Assembly (NCBI RefSeq): GCF_029893585.1
Contig: NZ_JARXYX010000002.1
Location: 62,001-126,000 of the forward strand
DNA length: 64,000 nt
Reading direction: 5' to 3'
Origin: Streptomyces sp. LBL
Lineage (GTDB): Bacteria; Actinomycetota; Actinomycetes; Streptomycetales; Streptomycetaceae
Program-made: the position numbers and the translations under genes
Notes under the pieces: generated by a model
Databases searched by the model: none
What the model saw: only the letters and a program-made list of their open reading frames with translations
What the model was told of the DNA's origin: nothing
Part shown: positions 13,339-36,899 of the stretch, piece by piece
Position numbering within the stretch: position 1 is the first letter of the stretch
Layout of the letters: each line of letters starts with the position of its first letter

Positions 13339-13602
13339 TCAGCGGCGGCCCTTGGTCCGGTCCAGTGCGGCGACGCCGAGGGCCGCCAGGCCGATCTGGA
13401 TGGCCAGTTCGATCCAGTCGACCCCCTTGGTGTCGGCCACGTCGAACGCCGCAGCGACGCCGGTGCCGACGAACGCGGCCGCGATGCCTACGAGGATCGT
13501 CCACAGCACGCCGATGTGCTGGCGTCCAGGGACGACCAGCCGCCCAAGGAGGCCGATGACAATGCCGATCACGATGGCACTGATGACACCCGAGATCTCC
13601 AT
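13339..13602 (-). CDS. GlsB/YeaQ/YmgE-family (transglycosylase-associated) membrane protein
   Basis: The 87-residue protein has three hydrophobic segments: ISAIVIGIVIGLLGRLVVPG, HIGVLWTILVGIAAAFVGTG and a C-terminal helix ending GVAALDRTKGRR. The GLLGRLVVPGRQ turn is the family hallmark. Members are small stress-associated inner-membrane proteins of unclear biochemical function. The ATG follows GAGGGG by 4-5 nt. It stands alone, with no operon partner. Confidence 0.88.
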   Translation of the reverse strand: MEISGVISAIVIGIVIGLLGRLVVPGRQHIGVLWTILVGIAAAFVGTGVAAAFDVADTKGVDWIELAIQIGLAALGVAALDRTKGRR

Positions 13603-14947: not shown

Positions 14948-16078
14948 GTGAACGACACGTTGCTGAATGCTGCCCGTAAAACAGTGCCGACGCTGTCAGC
15001 GAACGCGGCACTTACCGAACGCGAACTGCGGCCCGCGCCGGACAGCGTGACGGCGGTGCGCGACGCCGGCTTGTTCGCTCTCTCCGTGCCCACCGAGGCC
15101 GGTGGCCTTGACGTCGACCTGCACACATTCGTCGAGGTGATCGCCGAGTTGGGACGCGGCTGCGCCTCGACCGCCTGGGTCGTCGCGCTGTGCGCCTCGG
15201 CCAAGAAACTGACTGCGTCGATCGTCTCCGACACGGCCCGCGACGCTCTCCTGGCCGACCCGAACGCGGTCGTCTGCGCCTCCGGTGTCCCCCAGGGCGC
15301 CCGCGGTGAGCGCGTGCCCGGCGGCCTTCGGATCTCCGGGCGGTGGGCGATGGCGTCCGGCTCCGAACTGGCGTCCTGGGCCATGGTCATGGTGCCGCTG
15401 ACGGGCGACGGGCCGCCGACTGTCTGCCCCACTCTCGTACCGGCATCGGACCTCTCGGTCGACCGTACGTGGAGGGCGGCGGGCCTGGCCGGGACGAGCA
15501 GCCACACCCTCGTGGCCGAGGACGTCTTCGTACCGGAAAGCCTCGTCACGTTCCCGGACGGTGCCGGCCCCATGGTCCCGCCGGAGGCGGTGTTCATGGG
15601 CGGCCTCGCGGCGCTCGCGCCCATGATCGGGGCGACACGCGGAGCACTGGACGTCGTCGAGGCGGCGATCGCCGGTAAACGGGCTCCGTACGCGACCACC
15701 TACGCGCGCGTCGCGGATTCCCCCTTGGGCCGGTACTGGTTCACCGAGGCGCTCCAGCGCACCGAATCGGCCCTGCAGCGGACGTTGCGGGTGGCGGACG
15801 TCATAGACGCGCTCCGTCCAGGTGCGGCGATACCGGTGACCGAACGGATCCGGCTGCGAGTGGAGCTGACGACAGCAGCCCGGGAGTGCCGCGAGGCGCT
15901 GGAACTGCTGCTCGATCTCCACGGTGCGAGCGGATTCGCCGACGCCAATCCGCTGCAGCGCTTCTGGCGGGACGTCGCTGTCGGCACCCGGCACCCGTAC
16001 TTCACGCCCTACATCCTCGCCGAGGACCACGGCCGGGTCGCCTTCGACATGATGCCCACTGTCTCGCTGACTCTGTGA
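14948..16078 (+). CDS. Acyl-CoA dehydrogenase-fold flavin-dependent monooxygenase (HsaA/HpaB-like)
   Basis: This 376-residue protein has the acyl-CoA dehydrogenase fold. The N-terminal helices start with LSANAALTERELRPAPDSV. The middle flavin-binding beta region includes ISGRWAMASGSELASWAMV, and a C-terminal helical bundle follows. With a flavin reductase directly downstream, it is best read as the oxygenase half of a two-component, reduced-flavin-using hydroxylase acting on an aromatic or polycyclic substrate. The GTG start has AAGGA upstream. Its stop overlaps the next start. Confidence 0.88.
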   Translation: MNDTLLNAARKTVPTLSANAALTERELRPAPDSVTAVRDAGLFALSVPTEAGGLDVDLHTFVEVIAELGRGCASTAWVVALCASAKKLTASIVSDTARDALLADPNAVVCASGVPQGARGERVPGGLRISGRWAMASGSELASWAMVMVPLTGDGPPTVCPTLVPASDLSVDRTWRAAGLAGTSSHTLVAEDVFVPESLVTFPDGAGPMVPPEAVFMGGLAALAPMIGATRGALDVVEAAIAGKRAPYATTYARVADSPLGRYWFTEALQRTESALQRTLRVADVIDALRPGAAIPVTERIRLRVELTTAARECREALELLLDLHGASGFADANPLQRFWRDVAVGTRHPYFTPYILAEDHGRVAFDMMPTVSLTL

Positions 16079-16629
16079 TCCGGCCAATGACCCCGGAACT
16101 GTTCAAGCGCATCATGCGCCGCCAGGCCGCCACGGTCGCCCTCATCACCACGGATGGGGGTGACCGTGGCGACCGGGCCGGCCTGACGGCGACATCGCTC
16201 ACCTCCGTGTCCGCGGATCCACCGCTCGTGCTCTTCTGCGTGGCCCGGACGGCGTCCGCGTGGCCGGCCCTGTCCGTGACTGACCGGATAGGCATCCATC
16301 TACTCGGCGAGGACAGCCAGGAGCTGGCCCACAGATTCGCCACCACGGGAATCGATCGGTTCGATCACCCGGCCATCGGTGACGACGACGGTCGGACGTC
16401 GGTCGCCGACGCCGTCGCCTGGCTCGAATGCCGGATCGTCGACCGCATCCCGGCGGGCGACCACCACATCGTCCTGGCCGCGCCGGAAAGGGGCGGCCAC
16501 AGCGGCCGAGACCAGCCCGGACCGCTGCTGTACCACGACCGCCGCTATACCTCGGTCACGGAGCCGAAGCCCGGCGAGGTATCAGCCGACGGCGCCGAAA
16601 CCGTAGAGATCATCAACAAAGCGGTATAG
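16075..16629 (+). CDS. Flavin reductase (HpaC/HsaB-like) partner of the monooxygenase
   Basis: The 184-residue protein has the flavin-reductase-like split barrel typical of HpaC/HsaB. The segments LTATSLTSVSADPPLVLFCV and WPALSVTDRIGIHLLGEDSQ carry the FMN-binding region. It would supply reduced flavin to the oxygenase at 14948. The GTG at 16075 overlaps the upstream TGA as GTGA, indicating translational coupling. An in-frame ATG at 16087 is an alternative. The protein is slightly longer than usual at the C-terminus. Confidence 0.88.
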   Translation: MIRPMTPELFKRIMRRQAATVALITTDGGDRGDRAGLTATSLTSVSADPPLVLFCVARTASAWPALSVTDRIGIHLLGEDSQELAHRFATTGIDRFDHPAIGDDDGRTSVADAVAWLECRIVDRIPAGDHHIVLAAPERGGHSGRDQPGPLLYHDRRYTSVTEPKPGEVSADGAETVEIINKAV

Positions 16630-16871: not shown

Positions 16872-18257
16872 TCACCGGATGTCATCAAGGTCAAGGTCGG
16901 TTCCCACCACCAGGGTCACCACACCCGCGGCGGCATCCGGCCGTTGCGTGGCCCGGGCGCCGGGCAGCCGCGAAGTGAGTACCTTCGCCTGCTCGTCCAG
17001 GCCCTGCGGGTAGGTGGCCGTGGTGGTGCGGGTGGTCTCCGGCGCGTTTCCCGTTCCGGCGACGGAGAAGCCGGCCTCGCGCAGCATTCCGGCGACGGTT
17101 GCGGCACGCCCTGTGACGCCGGTGCCGTTGAGGACCTGGACGCGCACTCTGGACGCGTAGATCAAGTCCTGGGCGTCGGCTTGCAGTTCCTTCTTGTTGA
17201 CCTCCTTGTCCTGGGCAAGGGAGGTGAACAGGTCGGCGGCCTGCGGATACTGCCACACGATGTTGGCCTTGTCGGTGGCCACATCCGCCTCGCGCGGATA
17301 GTTGGGGACGGTGAGGAACGTCAGCCTCTGGCTGGGGATGCCCTTCACCTCGGAGGCGAGGCTGTACAGCGGCTTGATGCCGGCCAGGTCCTCGTCCGTG
17401 GTGAGGGACTTGGTTGCGGACTGCAGGAAGTCGTACAGGGCCTTGGGGCTGGTCAGCTTGGACTGGGCCTTCTCAGCGAGTGCCTCCATGAACTCCTGCT
17501 GGCGGCCGATGCGTCCGATGTCGGAGCCGTCACCGACGCTGTAGCGGGCGCGTACATAGCCGAGCGCTTCCTCGTCCTTGACGGTCTGGCAGCCGGCTTC
17601 CAGGTCGAGGCGTGCCTTCTCGTCGTGGATGGCCTGTTCGGGGCAGACCTTGATGCCGTCCAGGGCGTTGACCATCCCCTTGAAGCCCTGGAAGTCGACG
17701 GACATGAAGTGGTCGATGCGCAGGCCCGTGTCGGCCTCGACGGTCTTGATGGTGCAGGCGGCGGCCTCGGCGACCTTGCCGCTGGTACCGCCGATCGCGA
17801 AGGCTTCATTGATCTTGGCGTGGTGCCGGGCGGAGGTGACGCCGTCGCCCTTGTCGCACGCGGATATCCGCACCCACGAGTCACGGGGGAAGGACACCAC
17901 GGTCGCCCATTTCCGGTTCGCCGGAACGTGCATCACCATCAGGGTGTCCGACTGCATGGTGGTCAGATCCTTGCCGTACTTCGCGTTGGCTCCGTCGCGG
18001 CTGTCCGAGCCGACGACCAGGATGTTCTTCGAGCCCGGGCTGAGGTTGGCGGGGCGGTCCCCGCCTAGTTTGTTGTCGAGGTCGGCGGCGTTGATGTTGT
18101 CGTCCAGGTCCTGGTAAATCCAGGCACCGACTCCGGCGACGCCGAGGATGAGCACCGCGACCGCCCCCGCGACCCGTGCGAGGATCCGGCCCCGCCGCGT
18201 CAGCCGCGTCGGCCTGCTTCCGGCCGGAGCGCGCCGCCGTTGTCCCGTACCGCCCAC
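16872..18257 (-). CDS. LCP (LytR-CpsA-Psr) family cell-wall glycopolymer ligase with LytR C-terminal domain
   Basis: The 461-residue protein has a cytoplasmic basic N-terminus, one membrane segment (VAGAVAVLILGVAGVGAWIY) and an extracellular LCP domain. The LCP domain shows LVVGSDSRDG, MQSDTLMVMHV and FPRDSWVRI, including the Arg/Asp residues that bind the polyprenyl pyrophosphate. A C-terminal LytR_C domain follows (VRVQVLNGTGVTGRAATVAG). It should transfer secondary wall polymers from lipid carrier to peptidoglycan. The GTG start follows GGGAGGAAGG. An operator-like dyad identical in its arms to one upstream of the BlaI gene lies 85 bp upstream. Confidence 0.94.
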   Translation of the reverse strand: MGGTGQRRRAPAGSRPTRLTRRGRILARVAGAVAVLILGVAGVGAWIYQDLDDNINAADLDNKLGGDRPANLSPGSKNILVVGSDSRDGANAKYGKDLTTMQSDTLMVMHVPANRKWATVVSFPRDSWVRISACDKGDGVTSARHHAKINEAFAIGGTSGKVAEAAACTIKTVEADTGLRIDHFMSVDFQGFKGMVNALDGIKVCPEQAIHDEKARLDLEAGCQTVKDEEALGYVRARYSVGDGSDIGRIGRQQEFMEALAEKAQSKLTSPKALYDFLQSATKSLTTDEDLAGIKPLYSLASEVKGIPSQRLTFLTVPNYPREADVATDKANIVWQYPQAADLFTSLAQDKEVNKKELQADAQDLIYASRVRVQVLNGTGVTGRAATVAGMLREAGFSVAGTGNAPETTRTTTATYPQGLDEQAKVLTSRLPGARATQRPDAAAGVVTLVVGTDLDLDDIR

Positions 18258-18310
18258 CGGGGCCCCTTCCTCCCGTTCGGCCGCGCCCGGCCGATCAGCC
18301 GCTCACGAGC

Positions 18311-18334
18311 GTTCGGTGCCCATGGTCACCGAAC
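18311..18334 (-). promoter_or_regulatory. Second dyad in the LCP leader
   Basis: GTTCGGTG and its complement CACCGAAC are separated by 8 nt, between the BlaI-like operator and the LCP start. It could form an mRNA hairpin in the 5' leader or bind another regulator. Confidence 0.4.
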
Positions 18335-18342
18335 GGCGAAAC

Positions 18343-18358
18343 TCTACATCCATGTAGA
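18343..18358 (-). promoter_or_regulatory. Putative BlaI operator upstream of the LCP gene
   Basis: TCTACATCCATGTAGA is a dyad with 7-bp arms. It has the TACA...TGTA half-sites typical of BlaI/MecI operators. On the minus strand it overlaps a plausible -10 (GTATAT), with TGAGAA 17 nt upstream as -35, so a bound repressor would block the LCP promoter. The same arms with the same 4-bp centre spacing occur at 20040-20055, upstream of the BlaI gene. Confidence 0.72.
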
Positions 18359-18612
18359 TATACGGGCCGCAGGCGGGTTTTTCTCACCGCACGCAGAAGC
18401 GGGAACGCCACACCACCCGTCTTCAAGACACGTCGGCAGACACGGAAGTCAAGGGGCGCACATGGGCGGCACCGACAGCACACCCGGCCTGTTCGCCTCC
18501 TTCTTCGCGACGGGGAGGTCTCGGCCAACCCGCCCTGGGCCTCGTCATCGGAATCGCCCCGATTCATCGACAACGTCTGATCAGTGGCCCCTGCCACACC
18601 CAGAGATCGTCC

Positions 18613-19545
18613 TCAGAATGGTGTCGCCGTGTGCAGGATGAGCACCATCGTCACCGCGGAGTTCGCGGAGGACAGCGCGGAGACCGCGGTCCCGACCGCC
18701 GCACCCCAGGCGGCCAGGCCCACCGAGGTGAACACCGGCGGCCAGTTGCGCAACGCGGGCGGGGGCCCCAAAAGGGCGGCGACCCTTCGCGGCACCGGTC
18801 CCGGCGCGGCGAAGCCCGCGATCGTGGGGGCCGGGGTGCCGCGGGAGACCAGGGCGGCCTTGCCGATCGCGCATGCCACGGCCGTGCGGCTGCCGACCGT
18901 CCGGGCCGCCTCCTCGTCGGCCCACCGCTCCGCGGTGTAGGACACGGCTGTACGCAGTGGTCGCAGGAACGGGTTGGCGCGTGCGGCCAGTTGAACGGCG
19001 AGCAGGAACCGGTGGTGCCGGGCGGTGAGATGGGCACGCTCGTGGGCGAACAGGGCACGCCGTTCTGCAGGTTCGAGGCAGGACAACATGGCGGTGGTCA
19101 CGACCACCCGGTCCCGTCGCCCGCCGGGGAGCGCGTAGGCGTAGGGCACCTCATGGGGCAGCACCGCCACCTCGGCGCCCGGCAGCCCGGCCAGGGCCCG
19201 GTGGGCGCGGCGGCGGACCCGCCCATGCCGCAACAGGGACCGGCCGCACGTCAGCAACACGGCCAGCAACGCCGGAATGGCCAGCTTTCCGGCAACCTCG
19301 TCGTACGGCACGGCTTCGCGCACCTCAGGGTCCGACCAGGCGTCGGGCAGCGGGTTCCCGGGCAGCTGCGCGGTACCGACCACCATCAGCAGTCCCAGGC
19401 ACACGGTGCTGCACACCGCCATCACGACGGCCAGCCCGGTCAGCAACCGCGTGGCGGTCCGCGGGTGCAGCCGCTGCTCGGCCAGGCGTGCGATCGGCCA
19501 TGCCGTGAGCGGCAGGACCAGCGGCAGAAAGACGAACACCCCCAT
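18613..19545 (-). CDS. BlaR1/M56-family membrane metallopeptidase
   Basis: This 310-residue membrane protein begins with hydrophobic helices (FVFLPLVLPLTAWPIARLAE). It carries the zinc-protease motif HERAH near residue 165 (LFAHERAHLTARHHR). Further membrane segments precede the end. In the BlaR1 paradigm the peptidase senses an envelope signal and triggers inactivation of the BlaI repressor. Unlike BlaR1, no penicillin-binding sensor domain is present, so another stimulus is likely. It lies 6 bp downstream of the BlaI gene, in one operon. Confidence 0.92.
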   Translation of the reverse strand: MGVFVFLPLVLPLTAWPIARLAEQRLHPRTATRLLTGLAVVMAVCSTVCLGLLMVVGTAQLPGNPLPDAWSDPEVREAVPYDEVAGKLAIPALLAVLLTCGRSLLRHGRVRRRAHRALAGLPGAEVAVLPHEVPYAYALPGGRRDRVVVTTAMLSCLEPAERRALFAHERAHLTARHHRFLLAVQLAARANPFLRPLRTAVSYTAERWADEEAARTVGSRTAVACAIGKAALVSRGTPAPTIAGFAAPGPVPRRVAALLGPPPALRNWPPVFTSVGLAAWGAAVGTAVSALSSANSAVTMVLILHTATPF

Positions 19546-19551
19546 GAGGAT

Positions 19552-19941
19552 TCAGTCTTCCCTTTCATTCTCGGCTCGACCCAGCAGTTCGCGCAGCAGC
19601 CGTTCGTCGTCCGGTTCCAGAGAGGTGATGAAGCTGGACAGCACAGCCTCCCGGTTGCTCTCGGCGTCCAGCACCTTGCGCATCTTGTGCGCGGCCAAAC
19701 CCGCCTGATCCGAGGCCGGGGTCCAGGCGAAGGACCGGCCGGCGCGCTCGCGGGTCACCGCACCCTTGGCCAGCAGCCGGGTCAGGATCGTGATCACCGT
19801 CGTATAGGCGAGGTTCCCGCCGAGCCGCTCCTGCACCCAGCCCGCGCTCGCCGGACGATCCGCCTCACGCAGCGCGGACAGGACGAGCGCCTCCAGCTCC
19901 CCCTGGCCCCGCCGCCGGGGGCCCTGCCGCTGATCCGTCAC
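19552..19941 (-). CDS. BlaI/MecI/CopY-family transcriptional repressor
   Basis: The 129-residue protein has the penicillinase-repressor winged helix: GELEALVLSALREADRPASA and YTTVITILTRLLAKGAVTRE. A C-terminal dimerisation helix (AVLSSFITSLEPDDERLL) holds the region cleaved in family members. GTG 19941 was chosen because GGGAGACAGGAC precedes it. The longer frame upstream lacks family sequence. It probably represses itself, the M56 peptidase and, through the matching dyad, the LCP gene. Confidence 0.92.
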   Translation of the reverse strand: MTDQRQGPRRRGQGELEALVLSALREADRPASAGWVQERLGGNLAYTTVITILTRLLAKGAVTRERAGRSFAWTPASDQAGLAAHKMRKVLDAESNREAVLSSFITSLEPDDERLLRELLGRAENERED

Positions 19942-20039
19942 GTCCTGTCTCCCTTCCACCGACCCCGAGTTCACAGGCGGTCCATCGTATAGACGCCTCG
20001 CCGCCGGCCATCGCGCCCCGACCGGCACTCACCACATCA

Positions 20040-20055
20040 TCTACATAATTGTAGA
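20040..20055 (-). promoter_or_regulatory. Putative BlaI autoregulatory operator
   Basis: TCTACATAATTGTAGA has 6-bp arms identical to those of the dyad upstream of the LCP gene (18343-18358) and the same 4-bp spacing. It lies about 100 bp before the BlaI start codon. On the minus strand it includes a possible -10 (TACAAT). No other copy was noticed in the window. Confidence 0.72.
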
Positions 20056-20197: not shown

Positions 20198-21067
20198 TCA
20201 GCGGACGGTAGAAGAGGCCGACATGTTCTGGTCGGCGGCCCATGAAGCGAGGATGCGCAGCCGCTCGTGGGTTGGAGAACCGGGGGCGGCGGTCCAGACG
20301 GTGAGATGCTGGTCGGGATCGGTGTTGGCGGTGAGGGTGTCCCAGTCCAAAACCAACTCACCGACGACCGGGTGATGGAGGGTCTTGGTGCCCACGGTGC
20401 GGGCGGCGACCTTGTGGTCGCCCCACCATTGCGAGAACTGCTTGTCCCGCGTGGACAGTTCACCGACCAGCTCGATGAGACGGGGATCCTCGGGATACTT
20501 CGCCGCCTCCATCCGCACCTGCGCCACGGCGATCCGCGCCGAGTGCTCCCAGTCGGCGTACAGGCTGCGCATCGCCGGATCGGTGAAGATGAGCCGCGGG
20601 TAGTTGCGGTGCTTTTCCGGGATCCGGGAGAAGTCGGTGACCAGGGCGGCCGCCAGCGCGTTCCACGCCAGAATGTCACCGCGCCGCCCCTGCACGATGG
20701 CCGGGGTGGCGGTGAGGTCGTCCAGCACGCGTTGCAGCTGGGGCTGAACCTTCTGCCTGCCGTGGCGCCGGGTGCGGGTAGTGGTCTTGCCCGCGAGCTG
20801 GAACAGATAGCCCCGCTCGTCGTCGTCCAGGTGGAGGACACGGGCGATGGTGTCCAGCACAGGAGCGGACGCCTGCATACGGCCCTGCTCAAGACGCGTG
20901 TAGTAGTCCGTGCTGATCGAGGCGAGCTGGGCGACCTCCTCACGGCGCAGCCCGGCCACCCGGCGGGGTCCGCCCGTCTCCGGCAGCCCGACCGTGCGCG
21001 GGCTCAGTTCTGAACGGCGCTTCTTGAGGAACTCGCCCAGCTCATTGAGAGGAACGTTGCTGGTCAT
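20198..21067 (-). CDS. XRE-family regulator with MmyB-like domain (tandem paralogue 2)
   Basis: This 289-residue regulator has an N-terminal helix-turn-helix (REEVAQLASISTDYYTRLEQ) and a MmyB ligand-binding domain. It is highly similar to the gene just upstream; for example, both contain GRMQASAPVLDTIARVLHL. The start ATG at 21067 overlaps the upstream stop as ATGA, so translation is coupled. A further in-frame ATG lies three codons upstream. The pair diverges from the alcohol dehydrogenase at 22122. Confidence 0.92.
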   Translation of the reverse strand: MTSNVPLNELGEFLKKRRSELSPRTVGLPETGGPRRVAGLRREEVAQLASISTDYYTRLEQGRMQASAPVLDTIARVLHLDDDERGYLFQLAGKTTTRTRRHGRQKVQPQLQRVLDDLTATPAIVQGRRGDILAWNALAAALVTDFSRIPEKHRNYPRLIFTDPAMRSLYADWEHSARIAVAQVRMEAAKYPEDPRLIELVGELSTRDKQFSQWWGDHKVAARTVGTKTLHHPVVGELVLDWDTLTANTDPDQHLTVWTAAPGSPTHERLRILASWAADQNMSASSTVR

Positions 21068-21936
21068 GCTTCCCATCCTGAGGAGGTCGGCAGGTTCTGG
21101 TCGGCGGCCCAGGAGGCGAGGACGCGCAGCTGATCATGCGCGGGAGATCCCGAGGCGGCGGTCCAAACCGTCATGTACTGGTTGGGGTCGGTGGTGGCGG
21201 TGAGAGTGTCGCAGTCGAGGGTGACCTCGCCCACGACCGGATGGATCAGGGTCTTGGTGCCGACGGGGCGGGCCGCTACGCGATGATCTCCCCACCACTG
21301 GGCGAACTGCTTGTCGCGCATGAACAATTCACCGACAAGCGCGATCAGACGGGGGTCCTCGGGATACTTCGCCGCCTCTATCCGCAGCTGCGCCACCGTC
21401 ACCTGCGCGGCCGTGTCCCAGTCGGCGTGGAGCTCGCGCATCGCCGGAATCGTGAACAGGAGCCGCGGGTAGGTGCGGTGCTTCGCCGGAATGCGAGAGA
21501 AGTCGGTGACCAGGGCGGCCGCCAGCGCGCTCCACGCCAGAATGTCACCGCGCCGCCCCTGGACCAGGGCCGGGATGGAGGTGAGGCCCTCCAGCACCCT
21601 CTGCAATAGCGACCGGACCTCCTGCACGCCACGGCGCCGCGTGCGTACAGTGGTCCTGGCCGCGAGCTGGAACTGATAGCCCCGCTCGTCGTCGCCCAGG
21701 TGGAGGACGCGGGCGATGGTGTCCAGCACAGGAGCGGACGCCTGCATACGGCCCTGCTCAAGACGCGTGTAGTAGTCCGTGCTGATCGCGGCAAGATGGG
21801 CGACCTCCTCACGGCGCAGCCCCTCGGCCCGGCGCGGCCGGCCGGTCGATGGAAGCCCGACCGTGCGCGGGCTCAGCTGTGAGCGGCGCTTCCTGAGGAA
21901 TTCTCCCAGTTCATTCAGGGGGACGGTGCTGGTCAT
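21064..21936 (-). CDS. XRE-family regulator with MmyB-like domain (tandem paralogue 1)
   Basis: The 290-residue regulator has the helix-turn-helix REEVAHLAAISTDYYTRLEQ and a MmyB domain. With the following gene it forms a recent tandem duplication: long stretches match and both begin MTSxVPLNELGEFL. Two co-translated near-copies might heterodimerise or have split ligand specificities. It faces the alcohol dehydrogenase/SDR genes starting at 22122 and 23215, the probable targets. Confidence 0.92.
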   Translation of the reverse strand: MTSTVPLNELGEFLRKRRSQLSPRTVGLPSTGRPRRAEGLRREEVAHLAAISTDYYTRLEQGRMQASAPVLDTIARVLHLGDDERGYQFQLAARTTVRTRRRGVQEVRSLLQRVLEGLTSIPALVQGRRGDILAWSALAAALVTDFSRIPAKHRTYPRLLFTIPAMRELHADWDTAAQVTVAQLRIEAAKYPEDPRLIALVGELFMRDKQFAQWWGDHRVAARPVGTKTLIHPVVGEVTLDCDTLTATTDPNQYMTVWTAASGSPAHDQLRVLASWAADQNLPTSSGWEA

Positions 21937-35519: not shown

Positions 35520-36899
35520 TCACTTCCGGCCCGGGGCCCAGTTCATGCCCCACCCGTAGGCGCGGTCGAGGGTCCGCTGCGGGCTCACCCCGCGCTCGGG
35601 CACCAGGTAACGGGCCTCGCGCTGGACGACCAGGTCGCTTCCGCTGTTGGTGATCAGGGCCAGCGCACACACCGTGGAGGGGACCGTGCACTCGTCCAGG
35701 GAGAAGTCGATCGCGGCGCCGTGCTGCGGCTGGAGCGTGACCGTGGCGTGCAGGTCGGCGAACGAGCGCGCTCCTTCGTAGATGGTCACGAAGACGAGGA
35801 TGCGCCGGAAGGCCTGCCTGTGGTCGAGGTTGACCGTGAGGTTCTCGCCGCTCGAGACGGAGCCGGTGCGGTCGTCGCCGTCCAGGTGGATGTACGGCGG
35901 ACGGTGCAGGGCTCCGAAGGCGTTGCCGAGGGCCTGGACGACGCCCTTGCCGCCGTCGGTGAGTTCGTACAGGGCGCACAGGTCGAGGTCTAGGTCCGCG
36001 TTTCGGGCGACCGCGCGGCCGAGCTTGCTGCCCCAGCCCGAGAACTGCTTGTGCACCTCCCAGTTGAGGTTCACGCGCAGGGCGCCCGAGGCTCCGCCCT
36101 GCTTGGTGAGCGAGACGGAGGGGGCCGCCTTGGTGAGCGTCACCTTCGTCAGGCGCAGCGGCGCGGTGGAGGGTGCCGAGGGAGGAGGAGGAGGAGGCGG
36201 TGGTGGTGGTGGCGAGGTGAACGGGTGCGCGGGGACGGGGGGCGGTGTGATCGCGGGTGCGCCGGCCGGCGGGGTGATCGGGGCGGTGGGGGCGGGGGGC
36301 GGAGTGACCGCGGATGCGCCGGCCGGCGGGGCGGTGGGGGCGGGTGCGGGTGCGGGTGCGGGTGCGGCGCGCTGGGGTTCGTCGACCGTGATGCCGTAGT
36401 CCGTGGCGAGGCCCTCCAGTCCGCTGCCGTAGCCCTGGCCCACGGCCCGGAACTTCCAGGCGCCCTGCCGGCGATAGAACTCGCCGAGTACGAAAGCGGT
36501 TTCGACGGTGGCCCCGGTGCTGTCGAACCGGACGGCCACCGTGTCTCTCTCGGCGTCCCTGACTTCGATGTGGAGATCGGGCACGGCGGCGAACGTGCCG
36601 CCGTCGGCGGAGACGGCGAGGACCACGGTCCCGATCGTGGGCTCCACGCGCGCGAGGTCGACAAAAAGGGTGTCGGTCACCTGGTCGCCCGCCTGCCGTT
36701 TGCCCTCGTGCCGGACCGCGCCGGAGGAGTGCACCGGCTGGTTGTAAAAGACGAAGTCGTTGTCGGAGCGGACCTTTCCGTTCACCAGCAGCAGAGCCGA
36801 GGCGTCCGCGTCGGGCACGCCCGGCCCGGTTCGCCAGCCCAGTGCGACGCGCAGTGCCGTCGTCGGCACCGGAGCGTTGGAACCCTTCGCCATTGACAT
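35520..36899 (-). CDS. TerD-family protein with two TerD domains and a proline-rich linker
   Basis: The 459-residue protein is an N-terminal TerD domain ([20 protein letters not shown], then [20 protein letters not shown]) and a second, more divergent TerD-like domain (residues ~255-459). They are joined by a linker of Pro, Ala and Thr repeats, including a run of at least ten prolines. TerD domains bind calcium and are linked to tellurite, phage and stress responses. The start is at 36899, with GGGG upstream; two ATGs further out are less likely. It stands apart from other ter genes. Confidence 0.9.

What the first reader, a model, noticed from the sequence alone, without database searches (positions are those of the whole stretch)
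16872..20055. BlaI-M56 pair likely controls an LCP cell-wall ligase through a matching operator
The dyads TCTACATCCATGTAGA (18343-18358) and TCTACATAATTGTAGA (20040-20055) have identical 6-bp arms and spacing and lie over plausible -10 elements. One precedes the LCP gene, the other the BlaI gene. BlaI/MecI operators contain TACA...TGTA half-sites. No beta-lactamase or penicillin-binding sensor is present, so the pair may link an envelope signal to wall-polymer attachment.
Basis: partly seen in the sequence, partly recalled or inferred. Interest (0 to 1): 0.72.

Follow-up and report, generated by a model that had tools for sequence, protein, structure and literature searches.

The report
BlaI envelope-stress regulon in Streptomyces
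In this Streptomyces genome two palindromes with identical arms sit in front of a BlaI-type repressor gene and a cell-wall LCP ligase gene, and the same palindrome recurs across the genus in front of a shared set of envelope and stress genes, so the repressor and its membrane-protease partner, which lacks a penicillin sensor, likely control a wall-stress response rather than penicillin resistance.

Summary
TCTACA-N4-TGTAGA occurs exactly twice in the 9.35-Mb genome, at the two places named. Comparative genomics supports and widens the interpretation. In 199 genomes of the genus the dyad occurs 333 times; the reversed pattern gives 6 hits. It tracks the protease orthologue: present in 106 of 117 genomes with it, 8 of 54 without; 6 of those 8 carry it beside another BlaI gene. 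In 80 named neighbourhoods all 110 exact dyads are intergenic, and spacings N0-N3 and N5-N12 give none. Targets recur: blaI, TerD, TerB, TatA-like, Spo0M, CNNM, GlsB/YeaQ-like genes, an ion channel, LCP. Between protease and LCP the dyad is conserved in 13 of 20 aligned spacers. In the home genome only this LCP of 11 has it. The protease lacks a penicillin sensor; BlaR1 is its best, but not decisive, fold match. N4 spacing differs from CopY's N2. Binding, cleavage and signal are untested. Searches of an open-licence library showed no report of this regulon.

The parts
20040..20055 (.). Dyad TCTACA-N4-TGTAGA in front of blaI (predicted autoregulatory operator)
   Evidence: Exact, one of two in the genome; dyads with up to 1 mismatch lie within 400 bp upstream of 34 of 40 blaI orthologues and within 250 bp upstream of 57 of 81
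19552..19941 (-). blaI: BlaI/MecI/CopY-family winged-helix repressor, 129 aa
   Evidence: PF03965 (run on the longer ORF 19552-20028); best solved relative by sequence 2g9w, E 2.2e-11; start chosen from relatives
18613..19545 (-). Membrane metalloprotease without penicillin sensor, predicted BlaR1-like, 310 aa, HERAH at residue 168
18343..18358 (.). Dyad TCTACA-N4-TGTAGA in front of the LCP gene (predicted operator)
   Evidence: Exact; dyad kept in 13 of 20 aligned protease-LCP spacers, window included
16872..18257 (-). LCP (LytR-CpsA-Psr) glycopolymer-peptidoglycan ligase with LytR_C domain, 461 aa
   Evidence: PF03816 E 2.6e-45 and PF13399 E 2.8e-17; one of 11 LCP matches in the genome and the only one whose fetched locus shows a dyad with up to 2 mismatches

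Best explanation
The palindrome TCTACA-N4-TGTAGA is predicted to be the operator of the BlaI-family repressor encoded beside it, which likely represses its own blaI-protease operon and, through the second copy, the LCP wall-polymer ligase gene. The pair appears to be the core of a genus-wide envelope/membrane-stress regulon whose other targets (TerB, TerD, TatA-like, Spo0M, CNNM, GlsB/YeaQ-like, ion channel) differ from species to species. By analogy with BlaR1, the membrane metalloprotease would be activated by an envelope signal and would inactivate BlaI by cleavage; because it has no penicillin-binding domain, the signal is probably not beta-lactam acylation. Shown: sequence, position, spacing, recurrence, co-occurrence and Pfam family of BlaI and LCP. 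Inferred: binding, repression, proteolysis, signal.
For: Only two exact dyads in the genome, at blaI and LCP. 333 dyads in 199 genus genomes versus 6 for the reversed pattern. Dyad present in 106 of 117 genomes with the protease orthologue (E at most 1e-60) and 8 of 54 with none or E above 1e-30, Fisher p 7.6e-23, the 28 intermediate genomes left out of the test and relatedness not corrected; 6 of those 8 have a dyad 44-202 bp upstream of the matched stretch of another BlaI gene. 110 of 110 exact dyads in 80 named loci are intergenic while called genes fill 82% of the sequence. Spacing N4 110, N0-N3 and N5-N12 zero. Dyad (up to 1 mismatch) within 250 bp upstream: BlaI 57 of 81, TerD 37 of 45, TerB 29 of 33, LCP 12 of 23, protease 0 of 79, other genes 7 of 533. 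26 of 28 dyads at 27 loci picked by pattern alone sit before a gene of these classes. Conserved footprint before LCP. Home-genome TerB on another contig carries a 1-mismatch dyad, and a second BlaI-protease pair has two.
Confidence: 0.8

Rival explanations
1. The dyads belong to the second BlaI paralogue (next to DedA, contig C23) or to both paralogues in common, so the neighbouring BlaI is not the sole regulator.
For: The C23 pair has two 1-mismatch dyads of the same type in its own promoter region; its product is about 60% identical to the nearest of the blaI orthologues in blastp.
Against: Exact dyads are at the resident pair; presence tracks the resident protease orthologue across genomes. 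Cross-talk would not remove the LCP link.
Confidence: 0.25
2. LCP is expressed by read-through from the blaI-protease operon, and the dyad before it is a relic without function.
For: In 7 of 20 aligned spacers LCP follows the protease with no dyad.
Against: In 13 of 20 the dyad is kept while most of the spacer around it diverges; L197 has LCP displaced about 2 kb from the protease and still has an exact dyad 87 bp upstream.
Confidence: 0.1
3. Another regulator, such as the MmyB-like proteins encoded upstream (20198-21936), binds the dyads.
For: It is the next gene upstream of blaI in the window.
Against: A homologue of that gene was found only at the home locus among the 57 loci and does not appear in the 40 maps, whereas BlaI does; the TACA/TGTA half-sites are those quoted for the BlaI/CopY family (PMC7253601, passages seen).
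Confidence: 0.04
4. A copper-responsive CopY-type repressor.
For: Weak TIGR02698 CopY match far below cut-off (23.7 versus 121.95 bits).
Against: No copper genes among the genes typed beside the pair; the home-genome BlaI paralogue beside a heavy-metal P-type ATPase (contig C61) shows no TACA-N0..8-TGTA dyad in 11 kb.
Confidence: 0.03

Closest known systems
BlaI-BlaR1 / MecI-MecR1 (staphylococci, Bacillus licheniformis)
   Same: Repressor plus membrane metalloprotease, TACA/TGTA half-sites, repressor gene preceded by its own operator; BlaR1 is the best fold match of the protease
   Different: No C-terminal penicillin-binding sensor (310 aa), no beta-lactamase or mecA among the neighbours typed, N4 in place of N2 spacing, multi-gene regulon dispersed over the genome
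M. tuberculosis BlaI (Rv1846c)
   Same: Closest solved structure in the PDB sequence search (2g9w; that 2g9w is Rv1846c is recalled). Its regulon reaches beyond beta-lactamase (atpH, sigC; PMC8265638, passages seen)
   Different: I could not read its operator; no LCP or Ter targets are known to me (recalled)
CopY/CopR repressors
   Same: Same half-site; CopY is homologous to BlaI and MecI (PMC7253601, passages seen)
   Different: Consensus RNYKACANNTGTMRNY with N2 spacing and metal-binding CXC (PMC7253601, passages seen)
Clostridium thermocellum BlaI_0696 / BlaI_1845
   Same: Autoregulated; one operon carries a putative peptidoglycan gene (PMC8457756, passages seen)
   Different: BlaI_0696 motif has GTCTAT arms 5 nt apart; regulons of three and one operons
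Streptomyces coelicolor sigma-E regulon
   Same: Envelope-stress control of LCP genes (sco3044, sco5358; PMC6767563, passages seen)
   Different: ECF sigma factor, not a BlaI repressor; the word BlaI does not occur in its main text

Membership tests
BlaI/MecI/CopY repressor (PF03965) | Pfam domain above gathering score | tested here: met
   84.6 bits versus 22.6
BlaI/MecI/CopY repressor (PF03965) | TACA/TGTA half-sites in its own promoter region | tested here: met
   Exact dyad 98 bp upstream; 57 of 81 blaI genes in named loci, up to 1 mismatch within 250 bp
BlaI/MecI/CopY operator | TACA-N2-TGTA spacing | tested here: not met
   TCTACA-N2-TGTAGA 0 and TACA-N2-TGTA 0 in 80 loci; N4 110 and 116
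BlaI/MecI/CopY repressor (PF03965) | Binds its operator as a dimer and represses | not testable with these tools
   Needs gel shift and transcript data
BlaR1/MecR1 receptor (M56) | M56 profile above cut-off | tested here: not met
   13.8 bits versus 31; M48 61.6 bits versus 20.3
BlaR1/MecR1 receptor (M56) | Zinc metalloprotease domain with HExxH | tested here: met
   HERAH at residue 168; M48 family above cut-off
BlaR1/MecR1 receptor (M56) | BlaR1 arrangement of membrane helices and protease domain | tested here: inconclusive
BlaR1/MecR1 receptor (M56) | C-terminal penicillin-binding sensor domain | tested here: not met
   Protein ends at residue 310, after the part that aligns to BlaR1 3-290; no transpeptidase or beta-lactamase Pfam hit
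LCP ligase (LytR-CpsA-Psr) | PF03816 catalytic domain | tested here: met
   154.7 bits versus 24.6, plus LytR_C

The most novel reading that the evidence does not exclude
Streptomyces use sensorless BlaI-protease pairs as a modular envelope-stress circuit with its own operator code (TCTACA-N4-TGTAGA). It rewires between species and converges on the undecaprenyl-phosphate and wall-glycopolymer economy: LCP at one pair, and DedA/UptA-like plus two PAP2 phosphatases at the second pair. That would make it a beta-lactam-independent lipid-carrier or wall-polymer stress response, parallel to sigma-E.
Probability: 0.35. Interest if true: 0.75.

Novelty: new variant of a known kind. Interest (0 to 1): 0.63.

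Why it matters
BlaI-BlaR1 is the textbook beta-lactam switch. Here the same core, without a penicillin sensor and with a different operator spacing, appears to command a genus-wide envelope regulon that includes Ter, Spo0M and CNNM genes of poorly known purpose and one dedicated LCP ligase. It gives a predicted regulator for those genes and a testable question: what does a sensorless BlaR1-like protease sense?

Tried and rejected
Chance: rejected by exact counts and controls. Sites with up to two mismatches in the home genome are as many as the reversed control (55 versus 56). Of the 49 two-mismatch sites I examined 44 (5 were not listed) and none lies before a regulon-class gene, so I do not claim more home-genome targets. 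Home-genome TerD as a target: not supported (13 loci, no dyad up to 2 mismatches; none up to 3 in the C34 region). Sigma-70 promoter overlap: not supported. Copper link: not supported. A class-wide scan of the 18-bp form (up to 1 mismatch, counted by eye) found it in 21 of 33 genus genomes and 18 of 312 others; the reversed control also hit 18 of those 312, so outside the genus the total is at chance level. Literature searches (terms include BlaI with Streptomyces plus LytR-CpsA-Psr, TerD, operator, M56 or regulon) in an open-licence library showed no report of this regulon; listings were seen for all, passages only for the papers cited. A paper on the S. coelicolor response to envelope-targeting antibiotics (PMC3123327, word search of the main text only) does not use the words tellur, BlaI, LytR or Spo0M. 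PMC7831098 and PMC4757040 (passages) added nothing on this operator.

Limits: gene calls come from a simple codon-usage caller of mine with imperfect starts. The two sets overlap in species (for example S. spinoverrucosus and S. griseoruber contigs of equal length are in both), and genomes are related, so p-values are not corrected for phylogeny.

Full report
Observation. Exact TCTACAN4TGTAGA is found twice in the window and never in 100 shuffles. The home genome (9.35 Mb, 95 contigs) holds just these two exact copies; base composition predicts about 0.03. Six sites have at most one mismatch. They are these two, one before a TerB gene on contig C1, two side by side before a second BlaI gene on C23, and one inside an ORF.

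Genus survey. Of 199 genus genomes, 186 have some match to the protease. The exact dyad occurs in 126 of 199 genomes, 333 copies in all; the reversed pattern gives 6 hits (counts typed by hand). Genomes with a protease match of E at most 1e-60: 106 of 117 have a dyad. Intermediate matches: 12 of 28. None or weak: 8 of 54. Those 8 were examined: 6 have a dyad 44-202 bp upstream of the matched stretch of a BlaI gene of at least 50% identity; in G073 the dyad and the BlaI match are on different contigs; G136 has no close BlaI (best E 1.2e-9). The 11 orthologue genomes without an exact dyad all have 1-mismatch sites (1-8 each), with control counts of 0 to 2 each, so some are chance.

Neighbourhoods. 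In 40 unnamed loci and 80 named loci (79 from records titled Streptomyces and one titled Kitasatospora aureofaciens), the dyad recurs before the same gene classes. Pfam names for representatives: TerD, TerB, TatA_B_E, Spo0M, CNNM, Acyl_transf_3, Transgly_assoc and Ion_trans; the 72-aa class has no Pfam hit. In the 80 loci all 110 exact dyads are intergenic; 65 loci have at least one exact dyad, 72 at least one with up to 1 mismatch, 8 none. Within 250 bp upstream at up to 1 mismatch: BlaI 57 of 81, TerD 37 of 45, TerB 29 of 33, Spo0M 25 of 36, TatA-like 18 of 35, CNNM 13 of 71, LCP 12 of 23, GlsB-like 88-aa 9 of 12 and 87-aa 2 of 5, 72-aa protein 10 of 10, ion channel 5 of 6, acyltransferase 2 of 6, cluster c10 2 of 19, protease 0 of 79, other 7 of 533. 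Of 28 dyads at 27 loci chosen by pattern alone (the first place in each of 27 of the 126 genomes with a match), 26 lie before a member of these classes or a BlaI paralogue; the other two lie before a PAP2 gene and a gene 38% identical to cluster c10. The classes were defined partly on the same genomes, so this is a consistency check.

Spacing. TCTACA-Nk-TGTAGA for k 0-12: 110 at k=4, 0 elsewhere. The family consensus in print has k=2 (PMC7253601, passages seen). The Clostridium thermocellum BlaI_0696 motif has GTCTAT arms 5 nt apart (PMC8457756, passages seen).

LCP. In 20 aligned protease-LCP spacers (window and 19 named loci) the dyad and a TAGAGT at its end stand out: 11 exact, one 1-mismatch, one 2-mismatch, 7 absent. 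The home genome has 11 LCP matches; only this locus has a dyad with up to 2 mismatches in the fetched stretch.

Second pair. On C23 a BlaI-protease pair shares two 1-mismatch dyads 19 bp apart with a divergent DedA - PAP2 - PAP2 - response regulator - kinase group. NCBIfam matches of these to UptA and undecaprenyl-diphosphatase models are below the cut-offs, so the lipid-carrier role is a lead. In another genome (L063) a BlaI paralogue with an exact dyad is divergent from a class A PBP-like gene (Transgly domain).

Mechanism. Shown: sequence, recurrence, position, spacing and co-occurrence. Following from the family: BlaI would bind as a dimer and a BlaR1-like protease would inactivate it (PMC9834060, PMC3305447, passages seen). 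Inferred: the signal is an envelope insult other than beta-lactam acylation. LCP control by envelope stress has a precedent in Streptomyces through sigma-E (PMC6767563, passages seen), by a different regulator.

Verdict. Interest 0.63; new variant of a known kind.

Noticed in passing
G000:C23:7771-13449 (L180:2772-8450): Second BlaI-protease pair with tandem 1-mismatch dyads 19 bp apart, divergent from DedA-PAP2-PAP2-response regulator-histidine kinase; similar 19-bp-spaced pairs of 1-mismatch dyads occur in other genomes.
   Followed up: partly
window 20198-21936, minus strand: Two adjacent MmyB-like regulator genes (HTH_31 plus MLTR_LBD by Pfam in the first), similar to each other by eye, directly upstream of blaI.
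   Followed up: no
window 13339-13602, minus strand: Small 87-aa membrane protein like the 87-aa GlsB/YeaQ-type proteins found near the pair in some other species (79% identity); no dyad near it and no Pfam hit up to E 0.001.
   Followed up: partly
window 35520-36869, minus strand: TerD-domain protein of 449 aa without a dyad.
   Followed up: no
L075:547-1410; cluster c17: Voltage-gated-type ion channel genes (Ion_trans) carry the dyad within 250 bp in 5 of 6 named cases.
   Followed up: partly
L063:672-2626: BlaI paralogue with an exact dyad, divergent from a class A penicillin-binding-protein-like gene (Transgly domain).
   Followed up: partly
family f18 (genera g47, g64): Six genomes of another family carry 2-4 copies of the extended 18-bp dyad at up to 1 mismatch, although outside the genus as a whole the count is at control level; their targets were not examined.
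   Followed up: no
window 14948-16629, plus strand: Acyl-CoA-dehydrogenase-type HsaA-like oxygenase next to a flavin reductase (HsaB/HpaC-like; NCBIfam matches below cut-offs), a likely two-component flavin monooxygenase.
   Followed up: no
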